Shown here: positions 5,343 through 33,794 of the stretch, piece by piece
Layout of the letters: each line of letters starts with the position of its first letter
Numbering within the stretch: the first letter of the stretch is position 1
Program-made: the position numbers and the translations under genes
Notes under the pieces: model-generated
Told to the model about the DNA's origin: nothing
The model's input: the letters and a program-made list of their open reading frames with translations, nothing else
Database searches by the model: none
Virus record (IMG/VR): IMGVR_UViG_3300025133_000073
Span: 1-64,000 of that record
Source of the DNA: a virus
Direction: 5' to 3' (one strand)
DNA: 64,000 bases

Positions 5343-8300
5343 TTAGTATGCCGATATGAAATACTTCAATCTCATTTCTGGAGTGAAGATGTCGTTAACG
5401 TTGTCAACTACGGGAATAGCCTTTTGAACAGCTACTCCTATCTTATATCTTCCTTTGTTGATACCTGTCTTGTACGTAGGAAATATGTCTTCACCTGTCA
5501 AAGGTCCTGCTACAGGACGGACAGATCCCGCAATTCTCATGATACCGTCTATCTGATTTACAGCAGCAGCAGGTGACTTGATGATCTTCAAGGTCTCACT
5601 TGTACCTAATACAGGAATGAATACTCCAAATTCTGTAGCAAGACGATTGACCTGATAAGCAAGCATGTTAAGAGACCAGTTGTCGTCGTCATCTCCTGCA
5701 AGGGACGCAAGTATTGCTCCTGCTGAGGAAAGTACCAGATAAGAAGAGAACTCTACAAGATTCCTTCTCATATTCGCCTTCTGCATGGAGGAGAGTTTAT
5801 CCCATTGTCCCTGAGTGACACTGGCGAAAGTGTACTGATCACTTCGTAGTTCTTTGTACATCATTGTCATAAAGTGAGCAAAGGTTCTATACATCCCTTC
5901 AAACTCGCTTTCAATGCTGTAATCATAATAATGATCATCAAAACGTCTGTTGAACCATGGTATCATCCACTTACGGAATAATATGACAAGGCGTCCTGCA
6001 GCATACTGTTGCATTGCTGAACGGTCATTCACGTTATAGATACCATGCAGCCTCTGATTAATACCTTTGATACGAAGTCTCATTGCAATAATGTCCTCCT
6101 TAGTGACAGGTCTTCCATCAGGATGCGTAATGCCCTTCGATAGAACAAGTCTATTATCCTTCACTTCAAATGCTTCATAAAAAGGAATTGTATCACCATT
6201 GGCATCTTTCACTTTCATGCGATGCATAAGGGCTATTCCCAATCTTACCTGCATATGATGTTCACCAATATGATTGACAAAGAACAATGTTGAAGTATTG
6301 AACATACGACTGAATCTTGCTCGGTCAGTATTCACTTCTCTCATTCTGTTCTCATGATCCTGAAGAATATCAAAACGTTCAACAAATAACCTGAGCCTAT
6401 TACTGGAAGTAAGGTTTCCTACGTCTCCCAACAGTCCTGATATACCATCCTGATGCGACCCCCAATACTTCTTTTCAGCATATTTGAGATCATCATGATC
6501 CACAAATTCTTTAGCGAATGATTCCTGAAACATCAGAAGGTTACCTAACATGACGTTATTTATACCTGAATAGATATTCAAAGCAAGTGAGTTGAGAGAT
6601 GAGTACCTGTTAATTGCGTCTACCACTTTTGCTTTATCCAAGCTTGTACCTGCTATTTTTCCTTCATCTTTCTTTTGACGTCCGTAAAAGGTCATCTCCA
6701 CATATTTCATATATCGTGCATATGCTTCTCCTCCTTTACCTACCTTCTCATCTCTTCCGAATGTTCCTCCCCCTTTACGACCTGTCCCTATAGTTCGTTC
6801 TCTTAGAACGTCTCCTGATATTTCCACAAGATCCTGTATCTGCGAAAGATTACGGTGCCTATTGGCAGTTTCAGCAAGAAGTATCATTCCTGCACTGAAA
6901 TCCAGGGACATGTCATTGACATCCTCTATAGGTTTGAAGTTGAAGATAGGGATCTTCATGATCTCCTTATCATTCTCATCAAGTGTAACGTTCCCACGGT
7001 CATATTCATCTTCTGTTATAGTGAGCGTATCACTGGCAAACTTACTGAGTACTCTCTTTGGGTCATTTTTTAATCTCTCAATAGAATCCTTTCGGAATTG
7101 AGGAGCTATGGTGGAATTTCTATACTCGTCAGACATATGATGAAGAAGTTTCTTACGTTTTGTCATGACACCTTCGTAATATGCCTTCATTGCAGGGTTC
7201 TCCATTATCCTGTCATACTGCTTATTACCATATAATGCCTCTTTCGGAACTGCAAATTCTCTTCTGAAACTGATACCGTCATGTATTTCCACATAACGCT
7301 CATTGTACCAATCTACCCATGCTATATAAGCAGCACGTTCCCGCCTTGCAAGAGTAGGATTGTTAGCATGGATCTCTCTTATCCATGTCTTAGGATGCTT
7401 CTTTCGCATATGCTCAACAAACTCTATATCCTTGTCGAATGTTATGAATGACTTTCGGATATCCCTAAGTTTCCTCTCTCCTATTTTTGCCCAATCAGGA
7501 TTAGGATCAGTATTCTCCTCGAACCATTCTTTTATCTCAAGATTGTAATCCGCAAACTTGTTAGGGTCAGAAGATGCCATATTACTGAGCTTCTTTTCTC
7601 TGGATGCCCAGACCTTCGGATCGTCTCCTTTTACAGGCAGTCCATATTTCTTATTCAGATCATCGAAAAACTTGTTCTTCGCCTTATCATACTTGTACAT
7701 GTTATACCTTGTAACGAAGTTGCGAGTGTATTGACCATCATGTACCTCATACATGAAGTCTGTATTGGAAATACCTGCTGATAATAACTTTTCATGATGA
7801 TCAATTATATCACGGGAATCATCGTAAGTGTCAAGTTGAGCATCTTCAATGGTCTGCTTCACAAGTCTGTCCATGACCATGAGTACATCATCTTTAGAAT
7901 TTGCCATTGAGTCCATGTGACGATTCTTAGCATTCAGGTCAGAGAACGTTATACTCAATGACTCAAGATATTCTTCCATGTTCTTTTCTACCAACTTATC
8001 CTGATCAGGATGCCCTGTGTGACGTCTTACAAAATAAGGTCTCGCAGAAGCTGCCATAAGATTTTTGGAATAATCCATGTAATCTTCTTCCATAACGTTG
8101 ATGCCGTCATTGATCTCATGAATAGCATGTTTCAAAGTCTCCAGAGCAGGCAGAAGCTTCTTTGCTCCATTGGGATCGATAGGATCATTCTCTACACGAT
8201 TCATGTATGGTATGATATGCTGAGAAAGAGAATTGACAATAGGTTTGAATACGCTAATGTATTGGCTCATTTCACGAACAAGTGTTGCCATATCATTAAG

Positions 8301-9677
8301 ATTATCATCATAGACACCTGTAGAGAATTTCTCTCTTAGCTCAGGAATCCGTGATAACACCTGTTGTGCTTGACTTTCGGCATGTGCCAGGAAGTTCACA
8401 ATTCCCATTGTGGTAGCAGCAGGATGTTCAGCAATACTATCCTCAGTACCGTTAAAATAATGCTTTGCAAGCATTTTACGTACCTTTTCTTCTTTCTCAA
8501 CGAAGCCTGATTTACCTCGTCTGTCATTGTAAAGGTTGATCTTTCTTTTGATCACAGTGATCGCTTCATGAAGTTCTTCTCTGAGGTTATTCAATACCGC
8601 AGAATGCTCGAACATTGAAGGATCGATAGTAAAGAAGTGGTCAGTAGCTACCTTCTTCTGATTGTCAAAGGTCTTTTGAAGCATCCGTGAATCAGATATT
8701 GCAGCTTCCGAGATAGAATCAAGTGTAGCACGTATCTTACGTCCTTTCGCTCTATCAGATGAGCTGAACATTGCAACGAAACGAGCCCAGATACGTCTGA
8801 GTTTGCGTAACCACTTGGGAGAAGTGTCCTGTACAGCATTGATAAGGCTGTCAGACATCATCTTACCTAAGATCTCCAAGCGTACCTTGCTCTCATTGTT
8901 GTCATACTCCTTCATATACTTCTGAAAGTCTCTTTTCCACTCCTCGGTGGTATGTATATTGGCAAGAGCGTCCTTTACAATAGGGTCACCCTGTAAGGCA
9001 AATAGAATGAAGTGAGCTGTCTCCTCAGGAAGAGTATGTAGGTCTGCACTACCTTCTTTTACTGCAATTGATTTCCTGAACATATCAGCTACAGCTACAG
9101 CATTGAGGGTCTTTTTGAATTTAGATTCATAATACGATCTGTATGCCTCAAAATCCTCAAATGCAACACCCATCTGATCAAGGATGTCCTTCATCTTAGC
9201 ATCTACTTTAGGATCAGCAGGTGTATTCACAGGGTCAGAATCTTTTTGAAGGAATTCTCCTGCGTCCTTCTTACGGACATTATCAGCCTCATCATATGAA
9301 GGATATATATCACCTCCGTATTCATACTGTCCCTGTCCTATAGGTCTGACTATGGGAACATCAGGAGAGGGAGCATCATGTAATTTAAGGTACCATATCT
9401 CTCTACCTCCTTGTCCTGAGGTCTTTGCGCGATGCTTGGTAACTGCAGGATATTTCATCTTGGTATTCAACTTTGCGATACCTGTAGAAGCGGCAGCAAA
9501 CCCATGTTTTGTGATATAGTATATTCCCTTATACTTCTTTATACCTACTATCTCACGGACCATGTCTTCAACAGACTTTTCCCGTTTCTGTACTTGACCT
9601 GCAAGTGCTCCATAGTAGTTCACAAGGGATCTCTTATCCTTGAATGTCTGTCCGTTATATTTATATACGCAGCTCAT
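5343..9677 (-). CDS. Giant virion protein with altered zincin-like motif, 1444 aa
   Basis: Last gene of the cargo series; it shares one base with the upstream 689-aa gene. Most of it is highly charged and helical. Around residues 218-222 it reads LPEETAH, which aligns with the HExxH motif of zincins except that the first His is Glu; a matching downstream segment RLEILGK offers a possible third ligand. Near the C-terminus there is a hydrophobic segment (YLVLSSAGAILASLAG) that may insert in a membrane. In crAss-like phages the genes beside the virion RNA polymerase encode large ejected cargo proteins, and this one fits by position and size. I cannot assign an enzymatic activity. An inactive or metal-altered peptidase fold is possible. 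Confidence 0.85.
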   Translation of the reverse strand: MSCVYKYNGQTFKDKRSLVNYYGALAGQVQKREKSVEDMVREIVGIKKYKGIYYITKHGFAAASTGIAKLNTKMKYPAVTKHRAKTSGQGGREIWYLKLHDAPSPDVPIVRPIGQGQYEYGGDIYPSYDEADNVRKKDAGEFLQKDSDPVNTPADPKVDAKMKDILDQMGVAFEDFEAYRSYYESKFKKTLNAVAVADMFRKSIAVKEGSADLHTLPEETAHFILFALQGDPIVKDALANIHTTEEWKRDFQKYMKEYDNNESKVRLEILGKMMSDSLINAVQDTSPKWLRKLRRIWARFVAMFSSSDRAKGRKIRATLDSISEAAISDSRMLQKTFDNQKKVATDHFFTIDPSMFEHSAVLNNLREELHEAITVIKRKINLYNDRRGKSGFVEKEEKVRKMLAKHYFNGTEDSIAEHPAATTMGIVNFLAHAESQAQQVLSRIPELREKFSTGVYDDNLNDMATLVREMSQYISVFKPIVNSLSQHIIPYMNRVENDPIDPNGAKKLLPALETLKHAIHEINDGINVMEEDYMDYSKNLMAASARPYFVRRHTGHPDQDKLVEKNMEEYLESLSITFSDLNAKNRHMDSMANSKDDVLMVMDRLVKQTIEDAQLDTYDDSRDIIDHHEKLLSAGISNTDFMYEVHDGQYTRNFVTRYNMYKYDKAKNKFFDDLNKKYGLPVKGDDPKVWASREKKLSNMASSDPNKFADYNLEIKEWFEENTDPNPDWAKIGERKLRDIRKSFITFDKDIEFVEHMRKKHPKTWIREIHANNPTLARRERAAYIAWVDWYNERYVEIHDGISFRREFAVPKEALYGNKQYDRIMENPAMKAYYEGVMTKRKKLLHHMSDEYRNSTIAPQFRKDSIERLKNDPKRVLSKFASDTLTITEDEYDRGNVTLDENDKEIMKIPIFNFKPIEDVNDMSLDFSAGMILLAETANRHRNLSQIQDLVEISGDVLRERTIGTGRKGGGTFGRDEKVGKGGEAYARYMKYVEMTFYGRQKKDEGKIAGTSLDKAKVVDAINRYSSLNSLALNIYSGINNVMLGNLLMFQESFAKEFVDHDDLKYAEKKYWGSHQDGISGLLGDVGNLTSSNRLRLFVERFDILQDHENRMREVNTDRARFSRMFNTSTLFFVNHIGEHHMQVRLGIALMHRMKVKDANGDTIPFYEAFEVKDNRLVLSKGITHPDGRPVTKEDIIAMRLRIKGINQRLHGIYNVNDRSAMQQYAAGRLVILFRKWMIPWFNRRFDDHYYDYSIESEFEGMYRTFAHFMTMMYKELRSDQYTFASVTQGQWDKLSSMQKANMRRNLVEFSSYLVLSSAGAILASLAGDDDDNWSLNMLAYQVNRLATEFGVFIPVLGTSETLKIIKSPAAAVNQIDGIMRIAGSVRPVAGPLTGEDIFPTYKTGINKGRYKIGVAVQKAIPVVDNVNDIFTPEMRLKYFISAY

Positions 9678-11746
9678 TAATCGAATTTAATAATATCAAA
9701 ATTAGTAACTGGATTATAAAGAGAGAACTTTTTATTACCTTCCTTAGCTTCCTTTTCATATGCTCCTATCACACCTTCATAGGTCTTGTATTTACGAAGA
9801 CTATTAGGTACATTCCCAGTGTTATGTGAGAATATTGCAAGTTTCCATAATTCATTGTTGGTCAGTTTAACCTCCTTATCGTTCTTTTGGATCTTTGCCA
9901 AACGTGAGTAACTGTCCAAGAGCTTCAATTGTACAGCTTTGACGGCTGTCTTAGCACCAAGATGTCCTATATCTTTAAGATTGGATTTATTGATACCATA
10001 ATAATCTCTCTGCTCCTTTGAAAAGTTAGTTCTCGGTTTCGTACGACTTGGTCCTGCAGAAGCTTCTTCACCTCCGAATGCCTCACGCATATCAGCAACG
10101 GGACCAAGTAGATCACGGACCCATTTATAATACTTCAGTGTACCTCCTCCGCTTTCCTGATTGATTATCAGTACAGAAGCTCTCATGAGTTCCTGCTGAT
10201 TCTTGTATGATAGATCAATTCCCTCAGCATTTGCGAGCTGTGCAGAATAATGCTTGGCATATCCCGTCATTACATTCATGTCGGTGGTCAAAAGAGCTGA
10301 ATCAGAATTCTTTATACCTTCCACATTATTCATCATTGAGGTATATTGAGACATCTTGATCTCTTTAGAGAAGTCGTCATTGTTGGAAGCAGCGTGTATG
10401 ATAAGACCATTCTTGTTCTTACCTGTAATGAGCTGTTCAAGAGGGGTACGTTTAATACCTCCATATTTATGCATTACAAACTTTTTACCTTGCGCATCTT
10501 CGACAATATAACCGAAATGCGAACCAGGCGTCTGATCACGAGTATCATCCCATGCCTCATTGGAAAAAGAACTTCCTGGATTATAGATGTTCACTACAGA
10601 AGTAGGAGAAAGACTCTCAAGGATCTCTCTTCGAGCAGGATCTTTAGGATCAACTGCAGTTTCCATAAGTGTATCTATCACTTTCCCACGTCGTGAACGT
10701 GCTCCCATTTTTACATCGTATGATTCCTGAAGCTTTTTCCGCTCAAACTTTCTAAGCTTTCTTCCTGTATCAGGGTGACGCTCTCCAAGGTCAAGTTCTG
10801 TCTGCACCATGAACTCTGTCTCTTCAAGGGACGTTATAGAAGGCATACGATTGTTCTCATTGAATATGGACCATACCTTTCTATACTGATCAGGCATGTG
10901 TTCCATTCGTTCCCATGCATCTCCTGTAGTAGAAGTAGGTTTGTCTATTTTGATATCATACTTATTTATCAGTTCATCACATACAAACTTGGTACACTGA
11001 GGTCCTACAGCATCTGAAGCATTTTCTGGCTTCTCTGTAAATTGTTTTCTGCCTCCTTTGATCGTACCTACCTTATTGGCACCTATTGAGAACTTAGCAG
11101 GATCAATATCGTCAGACTCTTCAAAACCCTCTACTCCTGTAAGCAGCCTATCAGGTTCAAAGTAATTTATCATGGCCTCACCTGATTCATTTGCGTTGAT
11201 GACAACTTCAGGAAGATTAGTAGTCATGGATAAATATTCTCCGTCTTCGTCAAATGATTCACCTGCGACATTCTTATAATTGTTCCCATCCGCAATAGAA
11301 GTAGGTTTCCCTTGTAAAGTTCGTTTATGCAGTCTTCTCGCTTTTGCTTGGTTGTATACCTCATCCGTAGAAGCAATATCAAAATTACGTGTTTCATCAG
11401 GGGTATTGACCCATTTGTCAAAGTCAAAATCCTTAACATCCTGAATGACACCTTCTGTGGTCTTCTTGGTTTCCTTATATATATCTGAATCTTTGACAGC
11501 ATTTATCATTCTGAAAAACGGATTCTTATTCTCAGGATCAGGTTGATTCTGTATTACAGAGCCATCCTGAGCAATAGAAGCAGCCTTAGGAAGTCTTGAT
11601 ACTTCACCATCAACACATTCATTGCATCCTGACTTTATGAGTGATTTGATATGAGCAACCTTTCCTCTTGGAATGATCACAATATCCCCATGACTGTTAC
11701 GAAGAGCGATCTCTCCTCCCTGTACTTCTACTTTAGTCTGTGCCAT
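9677..11746 (-). CDS. Virion-associated bifunctional cell-wall hydrolase, 689 aa
   Basis: Two peptidoglycan-hydrolase-like domains are visible. The first has a CHAP/NlpC-P60 pattern: Cys251 in GPQCTKFVCDEL, a GDAW segment, and His410 in PGSHFGYIV. The second looks like a lysozyme-fold transglycosylase: Glu531 in IINQESGGG and a later FSHNTGNV segment resembling the conserved YNxG element. The N-terminus opens with VEVQGGEIAL and IIPRGKVAHIKSLI, a short beta-rich region also seen at the start of the 702-aa protein. There is no signal peptide. It overlaps its upstream gene by 14 bases and shares one base with the downstream gene. Sitting among virion cargo genes, it is more likely an entry enzyme than the lysis endolysin, though either is possible. 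Confidence 0.75.
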   Translation of the reverse strand: MAQTKVEVQGGEIALRNSHGDIVIIPRGKVAHIKSLIKSGCNECVDGEVSRLPKAASIAQDGSVIQNQPDPENKNPFFRMINAVKDSDIYKETKKTTEGVIQDVKDFDFDKWVNTPDETRNFDIASTDEVYNQAKARRLHKRTLQGKPTSIADGNNYKNVAGESFDEDGEYLSMTTNLPEVVINANESGEAMINYFEPDRLLTGVEGFEESDDIDPAKFSIGANKVGTIKGGRKQFTEKPENASDAVGPQCTKFVCDELINKYDIKIDKPTSTTGDAWERMEHMPDQYRKVWSIFNENNRMPSITSLEETEFMVQTELDLGERHPDTGRKLRKFERKKLQESYDVKMGARSRRGKVIDTLMETAVDPKDPARREILESLSPTSVVNIYNPGSSFSNEAWDDTRDQTPGSHFGYIVEDAQGKKFVMHKYGGIKRTPLEQLITGKNKNGLIIHAASNNDDFSKEIKMSQYTSMMNNVEGIKNSDSALLTTDMNVMTGYAKHYSAQLANAEGIDLSYKNQQELMRASVLIINQESGGGTLKYYKWVRDLLGPVADMREAFGGEEASAGPSRTKPRTNFSKEQRDYYGINKSNLKDIGHLGAKTAVKAVQLKLLDSYSRLAKIQKNDKEVKLTNNELWKLAIFSHNTGNVPNSLRKYKTYEGVIGAYEKEAKEGNKKFSLYNPVTNFDIIKFD

Positions 11747-14700
11747 CTTCTGTTGCTTTCTTTACTAATGTTCCTCCTACTAAGAATGGTGCTACGGCAT
11801 ATACAGACTTTAAAAGTTTCTTCAGGTCTTTAGCACTTCTTCGACTTACTAATTCTGTAATATCATGATGTGCTGTAGAATGCTCAGTACTTGCGGTTTC
11901 TTTTTTCAACTTCTTTATCATACCATCAGTAATCTCATCACCATGATCCCATAGACCTAACTTTTTCAGATGATTCAGCGTTCGTACACCTCTTACTTGT
12001 TGTTCTCTATCGAGATCAAGATATGCTTGAAAATCTTGTTGAGAAGGACTTCCATATGTAGGATCTTTTTTCATTGGAATACCTCTAAAAGCTTCTTCTT
12101 CTCTTAACCATGCTGATGAATGAATCATTTCATGATTTATGTCCTCTTCTAACTTTTTAAGAAGCTCAGGAGTGAGTTCGCCACCGTCATATGATAAATT
12201 AATATCACTACCTAATGAAGTACCTTCCTCCTTTAATCGTGAAGGATCAATACCTTTAGTATCTCTCCATTGCACTTTTGCATTTTTAAGTTCTTCAATC
12301 ATTTCTTTCTGTAACGCCAATGCTTGCTGAGGAGTTTCGTCAGGTACAGCATTCATTCTTCGTGTTAACCATTCGTCAGAACGTAACCATTTAAGATGCG
12401 TCTTTCGTCCTTTTTCTACAATATTTTGTAATTCTACCGATGGAGTTTTTAATACAGGAAAGTCAGCTAACGGTATTTTATAAGCATTTTTCATTGAAGC
12501 ATTGAATTTTTTAGTAACAAAAGCTGGATCGACATTTTTATGCAAGTGCTCCCATGTCATTCGAGGAAGTCTCGTCATTTCATATATCTCATCATCTGGA
12601 AGTTTTAATAGGTCTTCTATGTCTTTTGGAAGAACTATATCATCAAGTTTATCAAATTTACCAACTTTAGGGCGAGATTGATAAATATTAGGATCAGCCA
12701 TATCAAATTCTCCACTATTGCCCTTAGCTGATTTGACAAAGTTACCAGGTCTATTATTTATTATTCTGACATTTCCTATTCCGCTATCGTCAATATCTCG
12801 TAACTTAACATTGTCAATTCCCTCTTCAACCATATATTCGCCTATCTCATCAGTTGACGTACGCCCTTTCCTCCATGTATCTGGTCCAAATCTCTTCTTT
12901 ATATTCTTTGCTACGTCATTATCTAAAGGACGAGGAGCATTTAAAAGACCTTCCATATACTCTATTGCTTCTTCTCCATTAAATATCGAGTCCTCTAATT
13001 CTTTTAATGTCCACCCATTCTTATCTACTTTCTTTCCAGACGCTTTCATTTCTTCAATTGATTTTTTTCTAATATCAATCACTTCCTTTTGCCTCTTTAT
13101 GTTATATATATAGTCCCTGTCTTTATAAGTACTTTTATGATTAACATCCAAATGTGCCCAATTCTGACCTCTAAGGTCAAAATCTGCAGAATTATCAGAG
13201 TTCTTCAGATAAAGCTCATTGACACCGCCCCCTTTATTATCCGCTCCTTTTATTATTTCTTTCTTGCTATGTGGAGCGTAATTACGAGCTAAATCTTTAT
13301 TCTCACTTGAAAAAAGAAGTTGTCCTTTTTCTGGTCGATCAGACTTAGTTCCTCTATAAACAACATCTGCATCATCAGGAAAAGCCTTCTTGAAATTCTT
13401 ACTTCTCTGCTGTACAAATTGTTCAGGACTGCCTCTAAAATCAGAACCGTCAGCATTCTTCATCCAAGTACCGTCAGCTTTTGTAGTAGCTTCTATGGTA
13501 TTGTATTCTTTCATCAGAGCTTTGTTCTTAGGGATCTTCTTATTCCATTTACCCCAATTTATCTCAGATGCAAATTTCTTTGAAGCGTTGGCCTTATGAA
13601 GCAGACCACTTGCCTGAGAGAACTTACCCACCTTCATCAAATGTCTAAATTTAGCAGCAATACCAATACCTGCAAAATTAGTCAGGTCTGTAACCATATC
13701 AGCTATAAAGCCCGCATCGTTCTGTTTACCTTTTAAACCATCCGTAAAATTGTAATTAGTGCCGTCAGCGTTTTTCCAATCAGTAATACCTAATGAATTA
13801 AGTAAACCCTGCGCAGGTTTAGATACTACCCCTCCTGCACCTTCAAGAGCGTCTAATACAGTAGCATTTTCATGTTCTTCTTCTGTATATCGTTTATTCT
13901 TAGGTCCCTTTGGTACTCCTTGTGCATATGTACCTGTTCCCATACCTTCATCTATCTTATCCCAATAGGTCTTAGAGGTCTTATCCCAAGCTATACTACC
14001 TGTAATATATTCCTGTTCTTTATCAGAGAGAGATGCCATATATGCCTCAGCATCGGTATTTCTGTCATAAGGTTTGCTTTTAAGAATCTGTTTACTCACT
14101 TGTTCTTTTACATATGTATCCCGTTCAGTATTATGCATAGCTTCCAATACGTCACCTGTAGCAGGATCGCCGTCTTTAAACCAAACAGAACGTTCAAATT
14201 TTGGATATTTCTTTATAGCCTTCCTTTCTGCTGTGAGCCATTCGGGAGCTACGTCAGAAGCAATAGCCTCAGGCTGCGTCCCTCCTGAATATATAGGATC
14301 AGTATTATCTTCTATTTCATCAGAAGCAAGTACAAGACCTTCTTCTGCAGACATGGTACCCTGCTTATTGGTAAGTGATATGCCACCCTTTTTGCTTACA
14401 GCTATGTCAATACCTCCCTGTGCGTGAGATTTGCCTTTGAACTCTCTTACTACTCTCCAATCTCCTCCTGGAGTAAAACCGAACTGTCCTCCATCTGCCA
14501 TGCATGGATTACCTGTCTGATCATCTACAAGTTGAGCCTTTCCTGTACTTAGAAGTCGTTGTATATTCGCTTCATCTATAGGATTGACAGTTTGTGGAGA
14601 GTCTTTCGATGCTTCCTTCTTACCGAATAGAACGTGTCTCTTTTCCGCATAGGCATATTCAGATAGGTCCATGACATATGCGCTTGCTGAATTTGTAAGT

Positions 14701-17700
14701 CCTCCTACAGAAGGTGCGTATTTGAGTGTCACACCATCTATCTTCTTCATTGCGTTATACAAAGCACCTATTTCATAAGGTTTATTGCGAGTAAACTGCA
14801 ACATGGTACGTGTCCATCTGTCTTTGATGTTCTTCCATGATTTGAATGCCTGTTCAGTATTTGCAGCATTCTTATCCACATAACTTCTCGCTTCTTTTGC
14901 AGCCTGTCCTGATGTAGTAAAACTTTCCACATCTATACTTGGATCATTTTGCAATATCTGCTTCCATGCGTCTAACTTAAGAGGTTCTACAACACGATTG
15001 AGTTCTGCATTGAATATTTTATCATACGCTTTCTTTGACATGATCTCAACACTGCCTGTGCCGTCAAGTCTATTATATTCTCCTGACATCGGATCTATTG
15101 CATACTGCATGTTTCCCACAACAAAATAGTTGTACGGAACTATCAGTTCATCAGGACCTGCATAAATAGCAGCGGTCTGAGTATTACTTTGAAGATGTCT
15201 TGTAGCATCAAATCCTGAAAACAATAAAGGAACATGCTTTCCATTCTCCTTAATATGCTTCTTGATCAGATGATGCACCAAAGGTGTAAAATAGGTCATA
15301 TACTTATCAAGATCAGCTACTTCTTCCTCAAGCATGGTATCAAGATCGATCTTCACATTCTGCTTTTTCGATTCTCCTAACTCCATCACTTCTTCAGGAG
15401 TTGCATTACTTCTATTATTGAATTGAGCATTGACAGCTTCATAAGCTGCTTCACGTGATCTGAAAGTAGAGTAAGGGATCAAAGAAGATTCCCATTGTTC
15501 TGTAGCACCTGCAAAAGGAACCATAGGCATTTTTGATATACTGTTCTTCAGTAATTTTTCTCTTTCTCCTTCAGTTGAAAGTAATTCAGGTCCACGGGTC
15601 TGAAGACCTGCATTGAGGACCTCAAGCATTGAATGAATACTCTTCATCATGGTCTCGAATGTAGAAAAGTCCATCAAGGAAAGATTCTCTTTACTCTCAC
15701 GGGCAGCAAGATTCAAATTAAGTCTGAACATCTCATCCTTTCTTACTTTAAGAAGTCTGTTCAACTTGTGAGTAATTATAGGAGCCTCCATGGATAACGA
15801 TGATGTCAGCGACTTCGCCTTTCGTCGTTTTTTAAAGGATATACCCATGTTCGTATCTCTCTCAGCTGTCACTGCGGTAGGGGTAGAGAATCCATGTAGA
15901 TCAAGATTGTGCTTACCATAATCTCTTCTCATTCGTTTGATCGCCTCTTCTATCATTTCTGTATAGATCTGATCATCGATCTCAGCATGAGGAGTATAAT
16001 CTTCAGGATTTTCACGCCTCGCCAATGCGTCGTATTCATAATTATCAAGTTCATGCTCAGTAAAAAATTCCTTAAAGCCTCCTCTATTTACGATGGTTGC
16101 CATTCGTAATTTAGCATTGAGGATCGCATTGATCTGCCCCTGTTTTGTCTCTCTTTCTTTAATGAGAATCGCATTATCTCCCATTAGATTCATATCCTCT
16201 TTAGCGCGGTCAATAGCTATTGAATAAGAACTATGCATGTCGGTAGCATCTGTTACGATCCCCTTCATATGTTCCAACATATCAGAAAACGCTCTCTCAG
16301 GTCCCAACATATCAGCAGTTATATTCTGAAGTATTGATGACCATGATATAGGAAAGTATTTTTGAGCGACCATATGTAGAATTTCAGATGTAGGTACAGG
16401 GGTGATATCCCGTTTATTACCCTCAGTTCTGATCAGATCTTTTATTACCGCAACCTGTCTGTCAACATCCGCAGTAAATGTGCTTGTCATTCTTTCAACC
16501 TGCGATTTGCTCATGTCAGCACCGTCACGCTCTCTACGTTTCATCAACAGATACTCAATGACATCACTCTGGATCTCATGTAACATCACCTTCTTATTGC
16601 CTACATTATCCTGAAAAGGAGTAAGTGATCCCCATGCGATAGGTCCTGATTTCCAATGCTTTCCTAATAAGTTATCGCTTTGGTATTCAAGTTTTGCATC
16701 ATTGAATCGTATCGAGATCTTAGAATGCCTGGTTTCAGGAGTTATGTTACTGAATGCGTTACTGATCCCATAGGTACTCCACGCAGGATTGATGTCGAGC
16801 TCCGATAAGAACCCTAACTCCCAATTCGCTTGAAGATAATTATGCGCTTCATTCACAAATTCTTCTGCAGTAATGGTCTTCATATTAGGATTCTCATCCT
16901 TGATCAACTTCTGTACTTCAGTAAGGATCTCCTTCTCAGGCTTTTTCATTCCATCAACACTGATAGGTGATGACAGTGAAATAGGATTCTTCGCATACTT
17001 CTGCAATAAAGCAGGAAACACCTTTAATGTAGGTGTGACAGATTCATATTTCCCCTTCGCTTTCTCTTCTTTTGAGAGATCAACTGTCTTAACTATGTTA
17101 TTTGACCCATAAGAAGCAGGATTGAGACTCCTGAGTCTCTCAACATGTTCAGGAATACGATTGGTAGTAAGCTTGAACAACTTATCAAGAGTTCTATTCA
17201 TGAATTTAGACCTCTTCTTAAAGTATGTGGTCATCCATTTTTTATTATGCCTATTTGCTTCTTCTGCTCTTAATACTGCTTCTCTCTGTCTTTCTGTATA
17301 TTGAGGAATGTTCTCAGTGACCCAATTTATCATCTCAGTAGATGTATGGAATACATGAATATCTGATTTACCATTCACCTGTAATTTGTAAGAATTATCA
17401 TTGGTTCCTGATATTTTGGATACCTTAATAAGGTCTTGAATATTATTCAATGCATCAGAAACGTCTATAGACCCTCCCGCCTGCAAGCTGTCCCATAATG
17501 CGTCATTTTCTTCAGGTGATAATAGGTCTGAAGTGTCATTGGCAAGTATCTTGATCGCAGCAACATGCACTGGGTCAGAAGTAAATAATGACTTTGCCAA
17601 TGCGACAAGCTCTCTCAACGTCTTTATGAATTTCTGATAGAAAGAAGAAGGCTTCGCACCATGTACGGTCTCAAGACGTTTTATCTCTTCTGCAATGACC

Positions 17701-19658
17701 TGTCCTATTGCTTCTTCTAATAGGGCATTTAGCGCAGTACTACTATTTATCATAGAGCCCACTTTAGAAAGACCTCCGTTGTAACGAGGATCTCTTTTAA
17801 GCTCCTCATATTTTGCTAAGACCTTCTCATCTATCTTAAGAGCTTTTGCTAAAGGATGTCCTGAATTAGCAATAAGAGAATACCACCAGTGAGCAGCTTC
17901 CTCAGGAAGTTTATTCCATGCTTCGGCTCTATCGCTATCAAGTATATCAACTGTTCTGTCTATGAAATTAGCTGCCGCAATAGCATCTTCCACAAGAGTA
18001 CCGTCAGTGCCTGAAATACCTTCTACGAGTCTTATATCTACTCCTATGGCATCAAGGAAAGAGGTCATATTATCAAGAGTATTCAAATGAAACTCAAGCT
18101 TCTTATCATCTGTAGTATCAATGCCTGCAGGATCCTCAATTATCTGAGCAATGTTTCTATTTGAGTCCAGAAAACGTTGTGATGCTTTTCCTATCATGTC
18201 CTCATTCATACTATGTGTAGGCATTCCCTTTACTATTGCTCTATTGATCATCGTAGGGAAATGCTCCATCAAAGTGCTCATTTTATTCCAAGGACCGTTA
18301 GGACGGGGATAAGATATTTCACGAACGAGAGGCTCATGTCTTTCCATGATAGTGTCTCGATTCTCCAAGATCTTCTTGTGATCCGTACTCGTGATCTCAT
18401 GTAGTGAGATTATACTCGCTATCCTAAGCTGAGTACTCAATATCATTGCGACATCATTATTGGAAAGACCAACATTGAAAGCATGTGCCGTTGTTTCAAG
18501 CTCTGATGCGTATGTGAACTTCCTTGTAAGAATATCCTTGACCCGATTGATATTATCCTTGTCTGAACTATCGTTCGGAACAGGTTTCGTATAATATTGA
18601 TTGGCAATTGATACAAGAGAAGGTTTAGACATTAGAGAAGTCGCACTCAATGCATCTGGATACGCATCATTCTCCCACTGCTCCATTACATCATTGATAT
18701 AAGGTATTGCCTCAGGAACATAATGTCTGAGATTGTCTATCATCATTATCTGAGCAATTGTAGTATGGTCAGATGGAGTATCTGCCAATAGATCATTACT
18801 CCCACTCAATGCGTCAGCTACCGATTCAAGAATGATACTCATTCTATCTCTCACTCTTATGACAGTATCTTCATTTATACCATCTTCCCTCGCTTCTGTC
18901 GTATAACCTCTTCTAAGAACTTTTATATGCTCATTGAACCAGTTATCGACCTGAGGCAGTCCAAGGATGTTTGTAGTGGTCAGAACAGAAAGCGCATCTT
19001 TCAGCGACTCAGGAGCGACCTTTCTGAATTCACTTAAAGGGTTGCGTACGGTACTCTCAACGAGATCAGTAACGATCTCTGTCCCATATGTACTTGCAGC
19101 TGTAGTGCCTAATATGTGCTCACCACTTGGTACAGGAACCACATTAGCAGGATTTTCTATGATCATCCTCTTCAGTTCACTTGAAGAAACCCTACTTAGA
19201 GATAGTTGCAGGTAAGGAAATTCCATTGGACCATCTAAGATCAATGCATCTACATTGGCATCTGTATATCGGGCTTTTATAGTTAACATCTTAAGCTTAT
19301 TGAAACGAAAGCCGTCAATACTTCCTGGTTTCTCTTGGAATGTAGGGTTGCTCTTAGCGAATGGTTCCCTTCTTTTGCTTTCCTTATCAATAATGTAGCT
19401 GCTCTCAACATATTTTCCAGAATTGAACTTTTCAGAAATATAGTCTCTTTCTTCTTTTGAGATCTTAAAACCTGTTGATTGAAAAGTTTCAGCAAAGATC
19501 CTATCATACATTTTGTCAATGTACTTATCAACTATGTGCATAGGCGGAACCTCTTCACCATAGTGAATGAATACCTTATAGGCATTGACATCACCGAGAG
19601 ATGACGATAGTGCTTCCCACTCCTTTGACGTCTTTACGGGGCATGATCTTGCAGGCAT
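11733..19658 (-). CDS. Giant polyvalent-type virion protein with ART-like and zincin domains, 2641 aa
   Basis: Second largest protein of the window, starting two bases after the RNA polymerase gene ends. Regions in order: an LPEEAAHWW altered zincin-like motif (E586, E587, H590); a region with IRFNDA then HEIQSD (1027-1032), the signature of a domain found in phage and plasmid polyvalent proteins; a mid-protein segment (about 1715-1795) with MADGGQF and SHAQGGIDI that resembles the N-terminus of other crAss-like cargo proteins; an ADP-ribosyltransferase-like region with YRGT (R2102), then FSS and a C-terminal LRDID...NRPGNFVKSA block (to about 2325); and an intact HEMIH zincin motif (H2509, E2510, H2513) with DREQQVRG as possible third-ligand segment. 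The last 30 residues are hydrophobic. It may be a fusion of two older cargo genes. Domain calls are from motifs only. Confidence 0.75.
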   Translation of the reverse strand: MPARSCPVKTSKEWEALSSSLGDVNAYKVFIHYGEEVPPMHIVDKYIDKMYDRIFAETFQSTGFKISKEERDYISEKFNSGKYVESSYIIDKESKRREPFAKSNPTFQEKPGSIDGFRFNKLKMLTIKARYTDANVDALILDGPMEFPYLQLSLSRVSSSELKRMIIENPANVVPVPSGEHILGTTAASTYGTEIVTDLVESTVRNPLSEFRKVAPESLKDALSVLTTTNILGLPQVDNWFNEHIKVLRRGYTTEAREDGINEDTVIRVRDRMSIILESVADALSGSNDLLADTPSDHTTIAQIMMIDNLRHYVPEAIPYINDVMEQWENDAYPDALSATSLMSKPSLVSIANQYYTKPVPNDSSDKDNINRVKDILTRKFTYASELETTAHAFNVGLSNNDVAMILSTQLRIASIISLHEITSTDHKKILENRDTIMERHEPLVREISYPRPNGPWNKMSTLMEHFPTMINRAIVKGMPTHSMNEDMIGKASQRFLDSNRNIAQIIEDPAGIDTTDDKKLEFHLNTLDNMTSFLDAIGVDIRLVEGISGTDGTLVEDAIAAANFIDRTVDILDSDRAEAWNKLPEEAAHWWYSLIANSGHPLAKALKIDEKVLAKYEELKRDPRYNGGLSKVGSMINSSTALNALLEEAIGQVIAEEIKRLETVHGAKPSSFYQKFIKTLRELVALAKSLFTSDPVHVAAIKILANDTSDLLSPEENDALWDSLQAGGSIDVSDALNNIQDLIKVSKISGTNDNSYKLQVNGKSDIHVFHTSTEMINWVTENIPQYTERQREAVLRAEEANRHNKKWMTTYFKKRSKFMNRTLDKLFKLTTNRIPEHVERLRSLNPASYGSNNIVKTVDLSKEEKAKGKYESVTPTLKVFPALLQKYAKNPISLSSPISVDGMKKPEKEILTEVQKLIKDENPNMKTITAEEFVNEAHNYLQANWELGFLSELDINPAWSTYGISNAFSNITPETRHSKISIRFNDAKLEYQSDNLLGKHWKSGPIAWGSLTPFQDNVGNKKVMLHEIQSDVIEYLLMKRRERDGADMSKSQVERMTSTFTADVDRQVAVIKDLIRTEGNKRDITPVPTSEILHMVAQKYFPISWSSILQNITADMLGPERAFSDMLEHMKGIVTDATDMHSSYSIAIDRAKEDMNLMGDNAILIKERETKQGQINAILNAKLRMATIVNRGGFKEFFTEHELDNYEYDALARRENPEDYTPHAEIDDQIYTEMIEEAIKRMRRDYGKHNLDLHGFSTPTAVTAERDTNMGISFKKRRKAKSLTSSLSMEAPIITHKLNRLLKVRKDEMFRLNLNLAARESKENLSLMDFSTFETMMKSIHSMLEVLNAGLQTRGPELLSTEGEREKLLKNSISKMPMVPFAGATEQWESSLIPYSTFRSREAAYEAVNAQFNNRSNATPEEVMELGESKKQNVKIDLDTMLEEEVADLDKYMTYFTPLVHHLIKKHIKENGKHVPLLFSGFDATRHLQSNTQTAAIYAGPDELIVPYNYFVVGNMQYAIDPMSGEYNRLDGTGSVEIMSKKAYDKIFNAELNRVVEPLKLDAWKQILQNDPSIDVESFTTSGQAAKEARSYVDKNAANTEQAFKSWKNIKDRWTRTMLQFTRNKPYEIGALYNAMKKIDGVTLKYAPSVGGLTNSASAYVMDLSEYAYAEKRHVLFGKKEASKDSPQTVNPIDEANIQRLLSTGKAQLVDDQTGNPCMADGGQFGFTPGGDWRVVREFKGKSHAQGGIDIAVSKKGGISLTNKQGTMSAEEGLVLASDEIEDNTDPIYSGGTQPEAIASDVAPEWLTAERKAIKKYPKFERSVWFKDGDPATGDVLEAMHNTERDTYVKEQVSKQILKSKPYDRNTDAEAYMASLSDKEQEYITGSIAWDKTSKTYWDKIDEGMGTGTYAQGVPKGPKNKRYTEEEHENATVLDALEGAGGVVSKPAQGLLNSLGITDWKNADGTNYNFTDGLKGKQNDAGFIADMVTDLTNFAGIGIAAKFRHLMKVGKFSQASGLLHKANASKKFASEINWGKWNKKIPKNKALMKEYNTIEATTKADGTWMKNADGSDFRGSPEQFVQQRSKNFKKAFPDDADVVYRGTKSDRPEKGQLLFSSENKDLARNYAPHSKKEIIKGADNKGGGVNELYLKNSDNSADFDLRGQNWAHLDVNHKSTYKDRDYIYNIKRQKEVIDIRKKSIEEMKASGKKVDKNGWTLKELEDSIFNGEEAIEYMEGLLNAPRPLDNDVAKNIKKRFGPDTWRKGRTSTDEIGEYMVEEGIDNVKLRDIDDSGIGNVRIINNRPGNFVKSAKGNSGEFDMADPNIYQSRPKVGKFDKLDDIVLPKDIEDLLKLPDDEIYEMTRLPRMTWEHLHKNVDPAFVTKKFNASMKNAYKIPLADFPVLKTPSVELQNIVEKGRKTHLKWLRSDEWLTRRMNAVPDETPQQALALQKEMIEELKNAKVQWRDTKGIDPSRLKEEGTSLGSDINLSYDGGELTPELLKKLEEDINHEMIHSSAWLREEEAFRGIPMKKDPTYGSPSQQDFQAYLDLDREQQVRGVRTLNHLKKLGLWDHGDEITDGMIKKLKKETASTEHSTAHHDITELVSRRSAKDLKKLLKSVYAVAPFLVGGTLVKKATEDGTD

Positions 19659-19659
19659 A

Positions 19660-22600
19660 TTATAGGTCTATATTATATTCTCCATCTGAAAGGTTGTCAC
19701 CACCTTCACATCGTTCCTTCCTTTCCTCAGCTTCCTGATCAGGTATGGAACTGATATCATATTCATCTGTCTGAGTTCTGTTATCTTCTGTATTATCGTT
19801 CACAAAGGCCTTGTACTTAGCATTGAACTCCTTAACGTCGTATTCGCTTTCCATATTAAGGATCTTTGCAACCATCTTACGATGAGCATCCACCCTTGCT
19901 ATTACTCGGAATACATCCTTAGGTTTCTTACTACCTCCTGCCTTAGCAGATGATGCTGTCATGATCTCATTCAGTTTTGTCAACATTGCAGGAACATCCT
20001 CAGGAACTGCATTCTCCTCTCTTATTCTTTCGTTTATTTCATTTCGTAACTGCTTACGCTCACTTATGAATAATGACTCAAGAGGCATCTTTCCATCAGC
20101 ATGGATCTTTGAGAGCTCGTAGAACATGTTATGAGCACCAAGGTCTGTCACTTCTACATATGTTGCAGAAGCAGGGGACTCAGGTGTCTTGAAGAAATAG
20201 TTCATGTTCTTCAACATTACTGTAGCAGTGTTGTTACCCCGTCGGACATTAGCCTGTATATAAGTTACAGGTTCATCTTGATACCTGCCTGTTTCTTCAT
20301 TCTTATATTTAGGATCAAACGGATGAGGCTTTCTCATAAGAGGTTTAAGACTCTCTTCTGAATAAGTAAGTAGCATCATTCCATTATTATCAAATTGTTT
20401 ATTTGAAGCTTCTGATATGTCCACATACGGTACAGTATTCAATTTCTTGTGTACATTACGGAGTATCTGCTCAATATAAGCACTGTACTCATTATAAGAG
20501 TAAGAAGAATTGAAGTTGTCATGCAGGTGCTCAGTAAGTGTCTTTCCATCATCTGTTACAAGTTCACTAAGATACGAAGGAGGGATCAGATTTGAAAATG
20601 TATTGAATCTGAAGTTATAACCTGAAGCAAAGAAAGCATATTCAGCAAGTCCGAATGCGATCTCTCTATCTGCTCTGTTTCTGGAGCTCATCATCTGCTT
20701 CCATTGTCGTTTGATCATTTCACGACCCATATCATCTAACCCTTCAATATCGAATTGTATCATTTTGAAAGGAACAGTAAGGTCGGTTTCATCAATTGCA
20801 TCTACTCTAAAGTTATTAATGAACAGGGAATACGGACCTTCTTTCTGTAGGGTCTGATAATCCTGAAGAGTATCTGGGAAATTTCTCAAACGATCTTCCA
20901 TGTTTGCGGGGGCGTACTCTGTAAAATCCGTAGCAAGTAAGGTCATCATCATTCTCCATAGAGTATTGATCTCAGGAGCCTGCAGTCTCTTACTTGATGA
21001 GTTCCATCTCATTATTGTGATGATGTCATCAAATGCACTGTTCGGTCCTGCATAAGGGATCTTAGCTACTTCTCCTATTATATCACTGGCTGCTTTTACT
21101 CCATATTTATAGAACACTTTCACATGGGGAAGCATTGTAGGATCACTAAGATATTCTTCAAGTCCTATCATCTTCTTACCTACGTTTTCCATTCTGACCA
21201 TGTCCTCCATGAGAATCTTAGTATCAGCAACACTCGGTCCTGCTGCACGTTTGATAGAGTCGAATCTCATACCTGCCTGCACATCAGACAATATTTTAGC
21301 AGATTCCATTGCTCTACTATAGAAGGTCAATACTTTATAGCGCATATACAGATCGTTAACGGTCATGTCCTTCATAGGAGTCTTTCCTAACTTGATCTGA
21401 TCAAAGAGTGTCCCTGTTATCTTAGTGTTCACAGGATCGGTCTTATATGCCAACAGGTCTTCTTTCGTAGCATTGAACGTAAGATCTGAAAGTCTCTTGT
21501 TCTTTATCTGATCATAAAGGTCGTCCATTGCTGAATTTCCAAAGTTGTCCATGATAGCATCTCTGGTCTCAGCAATAGAGGACTTCAAAAGCTCCTTGAG
21601 AATATGCTCTCCCTTCTTTTGAGAAGCATTGTATTTTTTGAATACGTCCTTGATAACAGGTTGAATGAATACAGCCATGGATGCTATCGGATCATGAAGA
21701 GTACGTATCATCGTATCAAGTATGTTAGCATTGGTCACATTCAGATTAAGTGTTCCTGCCAAAGGAAACTTAGCGTTATCAACAGACTGCGCAAGGTTCT
21801 CAGATATACCTGATAGAGCTCTTATTGTCTTACCGTTACTATCAACACGTTCTGCTTTATTCAAGGAAGCCCCTGTATGTCCATTGAATACGATAGGGGT
21901 ATCAAATTCAAAATCTGTGAACAGTGTAAGTGTATGATTGGAGTTATGACTCGCATGAATACCTACAAGGTCAAGACCTGTCATATTTCTATCAAATACC
22001 TCGCGGGAAGTTGAAAGAAGCATTGGATTAAGAGAATATACCTCATCAGATGATGTAGTATCCGTAAAGTCTGCCATCGCTTTCAACGTATTGAAGTTAC
22101 CTGGAGACAATTGCTTTGCTGCAGTTGATCTGTGAGACAATATCGCCCACATGATATCGATCAGATAGTTGTCACGTGACTTCTTGGTATCAAATGATGA
22201 AGGCACCTTGACAAGCTCTGAATGAAGTCGCCATTCGTCACGTTTTTCATCCCATACGTAATTACGTCTATTGGCAAAGTTAGCTCTTGCAAGACCGTCA
22301 TCGTAGTCTTCAAAGTCTTTGAACATCACTTTTTTACCCTTACGAGTGGTCTGTTCAGTACTGATAAATGTCTGAAACTCTGCTTCAGCACCTGATACTA
22401 CTTCTCCATGTTGATTGGTGATATTGTATAGCATCCCATAGACCTTATCGATGTCAAAGTCAAGTCCTGCTATGGTAGTAACCTCATCAGGCATGATTAT
22501 CTGACCTGCTACCCATGACGGTAAGTACTCTATGACCTTAACATGGAACATTGAATAGTAATCCTCAGTAGGTATACGGGCGAATATTCCCATTGTAGCT

Positions 22601-33700: not shown

Positions 33701-33794
33701 ACTGCGCCATAGCGAACATCTTCTCGAAAGGAAAAGGTTCATAGGTCTGTTGCATAGCAGCAGGGTTGAACTGTGTAAATCTATTGACTCCCAT
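30702..33794 (-). CDS. Virion cargo protein with C-terminal transglycosylase-like domain, 1030 aa
   Basis: N-terminal region opens with FTQFNPAAMQQTYEPFPFEKM and is helical, like the cargo proteins that fill the tail barrel of crAss-like virions. A Gly/Pro-rich low-complexity linker follows near residues 300-325. The C-terminal 160 residues look like a lysozyme-fold lytic transglycosylase: catalytic Glu887 in GIMAKESS, then GYKGQYKGHFQLG, and MVLAYAHNAG near the end, the usual pattern of this fold in phage tail enzymes. It would cleave peptidoglycan glycan strands during DNA entry. It ends on the first base of the RNA polymerase gene and starts two bases after the 702-aa gene, so all three are one transcript. 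The cargo role is inference from position and composition. Confidence 0.75.
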   Translation of the reverse strand: MGVNRFTQFNPAAMQQTYEPFPFEKMFAMAQYQRNRDDNVTGVLDKVRSEMHVEPGLATPDDARMVNADRDAAVADITSRYRSGELDYSGVTDAIWKMRQGWENDNRAKFVKSDFNMKNAILAETLKEGYGTTDAYGIHNPDAHTWTIPDKEAIIKAGGMVTGDMYNRLSTKGAPIAYKTFLDPIKADAITNHGYVEDPDTGQLIATVTTKDSSLDLTQIGRKVKPALEQLSSDPYGHGRLDQAGGADGELQKHIAMRQYQERIQGREFTYSDLKKELMAEASKMIKLNTSETSTSPKTPKSGGGGVGGDGGLFGGGARTGPIMPSAVTDSEIGGSSSPSIAAADLTGMNPYDEPDTPINKKTGLPETTRNGVNHSNIFAFSAAEQQDVLEKTIESFTTELMNSRSEIPVPGGTAYTMTIDQVNQEARKRGEAHFARQKKVAAAYRDASIEAVEAGITVPVLDENGKFKNQGTGRWGEVEKDLNTIVANTSADKETMDEVNNRIDRSDLPRAVKIAMKTMSFSSVADFNASVVKKVRSIWQGTGDILGLRAHDKFMDIYDQQLATKFGASEFAPLMYPLFSTEDTETVSKDQLASHRALITAAKDIAENGSGGIYYNNVRLNAPNEEGEDGMTRHKLFTQDGGTDYFIGHQYHAEEYRYDQDHNKVFVSGKYKKKNQSFDKTKPESADNPFYVESNLYEIDVTETAFSTMSYDQVRALHIMDAIQTSMETIGKGMITSVPLFEPDNVLEAMDDLVIKKNMDNTWAIHRGKTNTPNGKVAEISDILRDPDKYGINRPPENPDRLSRGQLMSHIMDVTYSRSGDPDEMARRTEAATGERRSRKGDDIPTDWRTRFTKLSSFGNFREGFINDDVSDEMIAEYTAGIMAKESSDGTDNEMYGGYKGQYKGHFQLGNDAIRDAARDIGKPIPTIDELEDDHDLQAELFYAYSAKNYRKLKNDMDNFSELSTKQQMMVLAYAHNAGASRTAGGKDEGVTVWQDKDGNWQVNVGGFTDGFGTSSSDFTDEMDHRFDG

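What the first reader, a model, noticed from the sequence alone, without database searches (positions are those of the whole stretch)
11733..13390. ADP-ribosyltransferase-like region in an ejected virion protein
Residues about 2097-2325 of the 2641-aa protein show VYRGT (R2102), FSSENKDLARNYA, and a C-terminal block ending in NFVKSA, matching the layout of the ART domains described in phage polyvalent proteins. A cargo protein with this activity could modify host proteins such as the RNA polymerase or ribosome at the moment of entry, similar in idea to T4 Alt.
Basis: partly seen in the sequence, partly recalled or inferred. Interest (0 to 1): 0.8.

Follow-up and report, generated by a model that had tools for sequence, protein, structure and literature searches.

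The report
Divergent ADP-ribosyltransferase domain in crassvirus cargo
A giant protein of a crAss-like phage, probably carried inside the virus particle and ejected into the bacterium with the phage's own RNA polymerase, contains a domain with the fold of enzymes that attach ADP-ribose to other molecules, but its usual active-site residues have been exchanged and its activity is untested.

Summary
P0001 (2641 aa, window 11733-19658, minus strand) carries VYRGT (R2102), FSSENKDLARNYA and NFVKSA as described. The domain's true bounds are residues ~2034-2330 (window 12669-13559). It shares a ~60-aa header and ~18-aa tail with phage domains that Pfam calls ART-PolyVal (21 of 25 relatives, best E 2.6e-17). 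Its own subfamily has no ART hit in Pfam. A confident AlphaFold2 model (pLDDT 87) matches 'PolyVal ADP-Ribosyltransferase' models in BFVD (E 2e-7). A model of the nearest insertion-free relative has, as weak best PDB hits, the anti-CRISPR ART AcrIF11 and diphtheria toxin (E 0.01-0.03). So the fold claim is supported, but this is not the standard polyvalent ART. The conserved His is Arg (27/28), the Tyr is Phe-Ser/Thr, and the usual catalytic acid is Asn2296 (acid in only 14/28). Asp2291 and Asp2270 are conserved. The phage belongs to or near Crassvirales, and the gene sits between the virion RNA polymerase and a homologue of virion cargo gp49, so ejection is likely but not shown. Arg- and His-type cores sit between near-identical flanks, which points to core exchange. 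ART domains in crassvirus cargo are already in public records. Activity and target are unknown.

The parts
11733..19658 (-). P0001, 2641-aa multidomain protein holding the ART-like module
   Evidence: Open frame; encoded directly after the virion RNAP gene; residues ~500-1724 have homologues in four viral contigs, none with an ART in the homologous protein
12669..13559 (-). ART-like module, residues 2034-2330 of P0001
   Evidence: Shared with 24-28 R-type and >25 ART-PolyVal-type relatives; AF2 pLDDT 87.0, pTM 0.81; Foldseek BFVD E 2e-7 to 'PolyVal ADP-Ribosyltransferase'
13374..13559 (-). Header, residues 2034-2095 (WNK.IP.NK.LM.EY..IE...KA.GTWMKN.DGS.F.G.PEQFVQQ.SKNFKKAFP), shared by R-type and H-type ARTs
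   Evidence: ~195-200 bp DNA blocks 76-90% identical between R- and H-type loci
13353..13355 (-). R2102 in strand 1 (position of the catalytic His in ART-PolyVal relatives)
   Evidence: 27 of 28 Arg, 1 Lys in R-type; His in 25 of 25 H-type
13308..13310 (-). S2117 in strand 2, at or beside the position of the catalytic Tyr of H-type
   Evidence: Ser/Thr in 25 of 28; strand 2 aligned with H-type 'GIYTTP.K..A..YA'
12822..13130 (-). Helical insertion, residues ~2177-2279, variable or absent in relatives
   Evidence: model (helices 144-246 of the domain); largely absent in L008, L014
12786..12788 (-). D2291 between strands 5 and 6, candidate functional acid
   Evidence: 27 of 28 Asp, 1 Glu
12771..12773 (-). 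N2296, position of the canonical catalytic Asp/Glu of H-type ARTs
   Evidence: Asp/Glu in only 14 of 28 R-type; aligned with Asp of cr130_1 'QDVRIVFNPNQIKS'
12681..12734 (-). Tail, residues 2309-2326 (KSAKGNSGEFDMADPNIY)
   Evidence: K2309, S2310, G2316 invariant; ~46-63 bp DNA block shared between R- and H-type loci
12120..12134 (-). HEMIH (residues 2509-2513), zincin-like HExxH motif downstream of the ART module
   Evidence: motif only, no family hit
19660..30702 (-). P0002, 3680 aa: virion RNA polymerase homologue (DFDID at 2748) with a gp47-like zincin region (HEAFH 1376)
   Evidence: phmmer 3.8e-63 to the cr85_1 RNA polymerase, 7.5e-21 to the cr85_1 gp47-like subunit
5343..9677 (-). P0003, homologue of crassvirus cargo gp49
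   Evidence: phmmer 1.3e-127 to the cr85_1 gp49-like protein
35958..40370 (-). P0007, crassvirus stabilisation protein homologue
   Evidence: 1.8e-27

Best explanation
Residues 2034-2330 of P0001 form an ADP-ribosyltransferase-fold domain that descends from the ART-PolyVal lineage of phage polyvalent proteins, with a rebuilt active site (Arg for His, Phe-Ser/Thr for Tyr, non-conserved strand acid). It is an accessory, exchangeable part of a cargo protein encoded next to the virion RNA polymerase of a crAss-like phage. Most likely the protein is packaged and ejected with the polymerase, the domain binds NAD through the conserved Arg/Ser/Asp cleft, and it ADP-ribosylates a host (or defence) macromolecule in the first minutes of infection; the variable helical insertion would choose the target. 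Shown here by computation: fold, descent, conserved cleft residues, gene context. Inferred: packaging of P0001 itself, NAD use, target, timing.
For: Fold: AF2 pLDDT 87, pTM 0.81; BFVD best match PolyVal ADP-Ribosyltransferase E 2e-7, prob 1.00, TM 0.65 on the target, and three further crassvirus ART-PolyVal proteins at E <= 1e-3; for the insertion-free relative L008 the two best PDB hits are ARTs (AcrIF11 6kyf E 9.7e-3; diphtheria toxin 4ae1 E 0.03), with ART2.2, ExoS, PARP12, PARP14 and Arr lower. Descent: the same header and tail as domains that score as PF18760, 21 of 25; strand-2 match in a core-only profile comparison, P 9.5e-4 against 0.6 for the reversed control. Conservation: R2102 27/28, S/T2117 25/28, D2291 27/28, D2270 26/28. 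Context: neighbours are the virion RNAP and gp49 homologues; in phiCrAss001 gp47, gp49 and gp50 were found in virions by mass spectrometry (PMC10172136); cr85_1, ctcc615 and cr271_1 carry ART-PolyVal-like domains at the C-terminus of large cargo-type proteins, two of them annotated as RNAP-associated.
Against: The canonical catalytic acid is Asn2296 in this phage and is acidic in only 14 of 28 relatives. No Pfam ART match for any of 17 R-type members scanned. With flanks removed, sequence similarity of R and H cores is marginal. The PDB search with the window's own model found no ART, and with L008 no hit reached 1e-3. P0001 homologues in four related phages lack the module. No proteomics for this phage.
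Confidence: 0.6

Rival explanations
1. Degenerate (pseudo-)ART: the fold is kept but catalysis is lost; the domain binds ADP-ribose, NAD, nucleic acid or a protein partner, or only stabilises the cargo protein.
For: Loss of His and Tyr and non-conservation of the strand acid.
Against: Arg2102, Ser/Thr2117, Asp2291 and Asp2270 are kept at 89-96% in proteins otherwise about 25-50% identical to the window, which is not what decay looks like; about 40% of header-bearing domains are R-type, so they persist.
Confidence: 0.25
2. Counter-defence enzyme: the domain ADP-ribosylates a component of a host defence system, as the anti-CRISPR AcrIF11 does with Csy1/Cas8, rather than RNA polymerase or the ribosome. 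(A sub-case of the best explanation.)
For: Best PDB fold match of the insertion-free relative is AcrIF11; AcrIF11 also has a variable helical region suggested to recognise its target and a non-canonical H-F-H-D site (PMC12421852); exchange of cores between fixed flanks fits changing targets.
Against: The match is weak (E 0.01) and one of fold only; no target information.
Confidence: 0.25
3. T4 Alt-like host reprogramming: the ejected domain modifies the host transcription or translation machinery at entry. (A sub-case of the best explanation; the first reader's view.)
For: Encoded with the virion RNAP; proposed for ARTs fused to N4-like RNAPs (PMC5512222).
Against: Not of the Alt clade (Alt is R-S-E; PMC5512222); nothing here points to RNAP or ribosome as target.
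Confidence: 0.3
4. Chance motif resemblance in an unrelated fold.
For: No Pfam hit; PDB search with the window model finds no ART.
Against: BFVD match E 2e-7 to ART-PolyVal; shared header and tail with PF18760 domains; best PDB hits of the relative are ARTs.
Confidence: 0.05

Closest known systems
ART-PolyVal (Pfam PF18760; Tox-ART-HYD2-like ARTs of phage polyvalent proteins, Iyer et al. 2017, PMC5512222)
   Same: Same header and tail, matching fold and strand order, same setting in giant multidomain phage proteins with zincin-type motifs and a virion RNAP nearby
   Different: His to Arg, Tyr to Phe-Ser/Thr, strand acid not conserved (Asn in the window); ~100-residue helical insertion; no Pfam score
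ART domains at the C-terminus of crassvirus cargo-type proteins (cr85_1 QOR59483.1, ctcc615 AXF52200.1, cr271_1 QOR59867.1; cr130_1 has one at a protein N-terminus)
   Same: Same phage order, same kind of host protein and gene block
   Different: They match the H-type profile (H-Y-E-like in cr85_1); in this window the ART sits in a separate protein while the gp47-like zincin region is joined to the RNAP
AcrIF11 (anti-CRISPR ADP-ribosyltransferase, PDB 6kyf)
   Same: Best PDB fold match of the insertion-free relative; non-canonical active site (H-F-H-D); variable helical region
   Different: Small standalone protein, not part of a giant cargo protein; starts with His, needs Asp115; fold match only E 0.01
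T4 Alt
   Same: Idea: an ART carried in the virion and injected
   Different: Different ART clade (Alt/VIP2, R-S-E); no sequence or fold link found here

Membership tests
[quoted passage not shown]
   Strand/helix order b1-b2-a-b3-b4-(helices)-b5-b6; BFVD ART-PolyVal match E 2e-7; best PDB hits of L008 are ARTs though E >= 0.0097. The cleft itself could not be measured.
ART-PolyVal PF18760 | Score above the Pfam cut-off | tested here: not met
   Window domain and the other 16 R-type members scanned: no PF18760 match; 21 of 25 H-type siblings match
ART-PolyVal PF18760 | His in strand 1 | tested here: not met
   Arg2102; Arg in 27/28 R-type
ART-PolyVal PF18760 | Tyr in strand 2 | tested here: not met
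   F2116-S2117; Phe then Ser/Thr in most R-type members
ART-PolyVal PF18760 | Asp/Glu in the last catalytic strand | tested here: inconclusive
R-S-E ARTs (Alt/VIP2 clade) | Arg, Ser-Thr-Ser, Glu-x-Glu | tested here: not met
   Arg present, F-S/T-x instead of S-T-S, no conserved Glu
Polyvalent protein | Two or more unrelated enzymatic domains in one phage protein delivered at entry | tested here: inconclusive
   ART fold plus HExxH motif, metallopeptidase not confirmed by any profile; delivery not testable
Crassvirales cargo/transcription block | Gene lies among homologues of virion-carried RNAP proteins | tested here: met
   P0002 and P0003 match cr85_1 RNAP and gp49-like; MCP, portal and terminase match PHROGs; the gene beside the MCP matches Crassvirales records
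Virion-ejected effector | Protein present in the particle and delivered | not testable with these tools
   Needs virion proteomics
Active ADP-ribosyltransferase | NAD-dependent transfer of ADP-ribose | not testable with these tools
   Needs biochemistry

The most novel reading that the evidence does not exclude
Environmental crassviruses carry a rapidly exchanged set of virion-delivered ART effectors in which hypervariable cores, of two active-site types (His and Arg), are swapped between conserved header and tail sequences, much as toxin tips are swapped in polymorphic toxins, and the Arg-type is an active ART with a catalytic centre not described before.
Probability: 0.3. Interest if true: 0.75.

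Novelty: new variant of a known kind. Interest (0 to 1): 0.5.

Why it matters
Crassviruses are among the most abundant phages known, and what their megadalton ejected cargo does besides transcription is open. An ART-fold domain beside the virion RNA polymerase gives a concrete, testable candidate for a host-modifying step at entry. The Arg-for-His variant, found in about 40% of header-bearing domains, is invisible to Pfam and so has probably been missed in surveys. The exchange of cores between fixed flanks suggests an arms race over targets.

Tried and rejected
Direct Pfam and PHROGs scans of the 2641-aa protein: nothing. tblastn of P0001 and of R-type domains against 50,697 annotated phages: nothing; only an H-type sibling hits annotated phages. 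Bacterial genomes: no R-type relative. PDB sequence search with R- and H-type profiles: nothing relevant. Foldseek of the window model against PDB: no ART, perhaps because of the helical insertion, so it was repeated with the insertion-free relative, which did hit ARTs. Considered that header and tail are a general cassette that also carries non-ART payloads: of 80 header-bearing loci, all 55 distinct cores that could be parsed were ART H-type or R-type (3 of them, first marked '?', read as R-type with SRG/WRG instead of YRG), so rejected; 7 loci could not be parsed. Considered membership in the Alt (R-S-E) clade because of the Arg: rejected, no STS and no conserved Glu. Core-only HMM as proof of homology: too weak; its best non-R hit is not an ART region. 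Asking the C-terminal 300 aa (HExxH region) for relatives: none.
Full report
Observation. The coordinates given (11733-13390) take in a further 300 C-terminal residues that are not part of the domain and miss its start; the module shared with relatives is residues ~2034-2330, window 12669-13559.

What phage it is. The window is part of a 75,406-base virus record. Terminase, portal and major head protein match PHROGs, the gene beside the major head protein matches Crassvirales records by tblastn, and the large proteins match the crassvirus cr85_1: P0007 the stabilisation protein (1.8e-27), P0002 the virion RNA polymerase (3.8e-63, with a DFDID motif), P0003 the gp49-like RNAP-associated protein (1.3e-127). 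So it belongs to or near the Crassvirales.

Relatives. Searches of IMG/VR with the domain, then with alignments, gave about 60 distinct relatives. They share a header (W..EIP.NK.LM.EY..IE...KA.GTWMKN.DGS.F.G.PEQFVQQ.S.NFKKAF) and a tail (KS..GN.GMFDMTNPNIYK). Between them lies a core of one of two types. H-type cores carry YHG...GIYTTP.K..A..YA...EIVFP.N.QLKS; 21 of 25 H-type domains match Pfam ART-PolyVal (best 2.6e-17), some also DUF3990. R-type cores, the window's type, carry YRG...FTG.K.LA..Y...STDD.A.Y...D...IKN..D...G.V.I.NN.PGN..KS; none of 17 scanned matches an ART family in Pfam.

Is it an ART? With header and tail removed, R- and H-type profiles align only over strand 2 and its helix (hhalign P 9.5e-4 in one comparison, 0.6 for the reversed control), and a core-only HMM is too weak to stand alone. 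The structure evidence is better. AlphaFold2 with 24 R-type sequences gives pLDDT 87.0, pTM 0.81 and the order b1 (YRG) - b2 (FSS) - helix - b3 - b4 - helical insertion - b5 - b6. Foldseek against BFVD: 15 matches at E <= 1e-3, the first 'PolyVal ADP-Ribosyltransferase' (E 2e-7, prob 1.00), with three more crassvirus proteins named as ART-PolyVal. Against PDB the same model found nothing. The nearest relative without the insertion, L008 (49% identity to the window, pLDDT 87.4), found AcrIF11, an anti-CRISPR ADP-ribosyltransferase (E 9.7e-3), diphtheria toxin with nicotinamide (0.03), and lower down ART2.2, ExoS, PARP12, PARP14 and Arr, mixed with acetyltransferases. None of these PDB matches reaches 1e-3; it is the consistency of the list that counts. 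I put the ART fold at about 0.93.

Is it an active ART? Polyvalent ARTs are described as His (strand 1), Tyr (strand 2), Asp (strand 5) (PMC5512222). In 28 R-type sequences strand 1 has Arg 27/28; strand 2 has Phe then Ser/Thr (25/28); the place of the acid, aligned through cr130_1 (QDVRIVFNPNQIKS against GNVRIINNRPGNFVKS), is Asn in the window and Asp/Glu in only 14/28. By eye, H-type siblings keep an acid there in about 19 of 25. D2291, five residues before, is Asp in 27/28, and D2270 in 26/28. D2291 is also seen in a few H-type cores that keep the usual acid (L020, cr130_1), so it may be structural. The conserved Arg, Ser/Thr and Asp argue for a working cleft; the missing acid argues for caution. 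AcrIF11, with H-F-H-D, shows that non-canonical sites can work (PMC12421852). I put NAD-dependent activity at about 0.6.

Delivery. In phiCrAss001, gp45, gp46, gp47, gp49 and gp50 are virion proteins found by mass spectrometry and thought to be ejected (PMC10172136). P0001 lies between the homologue of the polymerase (P0002) and, after P0004, that of gp49 (P0003), all on one strand with adjoining ends. Four phages with a P0001 homologue (residues ~500-1724) encode it just after the polymerase where that could be seen (L098, L101), but without an ART in it. In annotated crassviruses an ART-PolyVal-like domain is at the C-terminus of large cargo-type proteins with an HExxH motif (cr85_1, ctcc615, cr271_1). 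Packaging of P0001 is thus likely, not shown.

An exchanged module. Only the module, not the rest of P0001, is shared with most relatives. R- and H-type cores are interleaved on a tree of header plus tail (11 changes, at least 5 forced by well-supported branches; 79 columns only, so rough). L014 (R) and L043 (H) share 91% of flank residues and 15% of core residues; at DNA level a 196-base header block is 90% identical and a 63-base tail block 82.5%, with no similarity between and little outside; L024/L029 show the same (199 bases 84%, 62 bases 93.5%). No payload other than ART cores was found between header and tail. So the flanks belong to the ART unit and the core is what changes. Recombination is the simplest reading, but extreme divergence of the core alone is not excluded.

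How it would work. Most likely P0001 enters with the polymerase, the ART-like domain (perhaps freed by a zincin, as proposed for polyvalent proteins, PMC5512222; the HEMIH motif at 2509 is only a motif) binds NAD and modifies a host or defence target chosen by the variable helical insertion. Target, timing and activity are inference.

Known or new. ARTs in polyvalent proteins, including crassvirus cargo, are known from the literature and from database names ('ART-PolyVal-like domain-containing protein'). I found no paper in the held library on ART domains of crassvirus cargo, which does not show that none exists. New here are the Arg-type subfamily and the exchange of cores between fixed flanks. 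Verdict: new variant of a known kind, interest 0.5.

Noticed in passing
19660-30702 (-): P0002 (3680 aa) joins a gp47-like N-terminal and zincin region (HEAFH 1376) to the virion RNA polymerase (DFDID 2748) in one reading frame; in cr85_1 these are two separate proteins.
   Followed up: partly
L014/L043, L024/L029, L062/L087: Sharply bounded DNA blocks (about 200 and 60 bases) shared between phages with otherwise largely dissimilar neighbourhoods, flanking different ART cores.
   Followed up: partly
17886-17903 (-) and P0003 residue ~220: A repeated LPEE[AT]AH motif in P0001 (EEAAHW, 586), its four homologues and the gp49-like P0003; may be an altered HExxH-like helix.
   Followed up: no
9677-11746 (-): P0004 (689 aa) shows a CTKFV...GSHFGYIV pattern like a papain-type amidase and an ESGGG lysozyme-like stretch; possibly a cell-wall enzyme of the cargo set. 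Read by eye only.
   Followed up: no
30702-33794 (-): P0005 C-terminus (883-1026) matches a PHROG endolysin family (E 1.8e-7).
   Followed up: no
L093 (NC_055901.1), locus 13842-20066: The annotated CDS translates with an in-frame stop under table 11 after ~265 residues; perhaps an alternative code or read-through, as reported for some crAss-like phages (PMC7886860).
   Followed up: no
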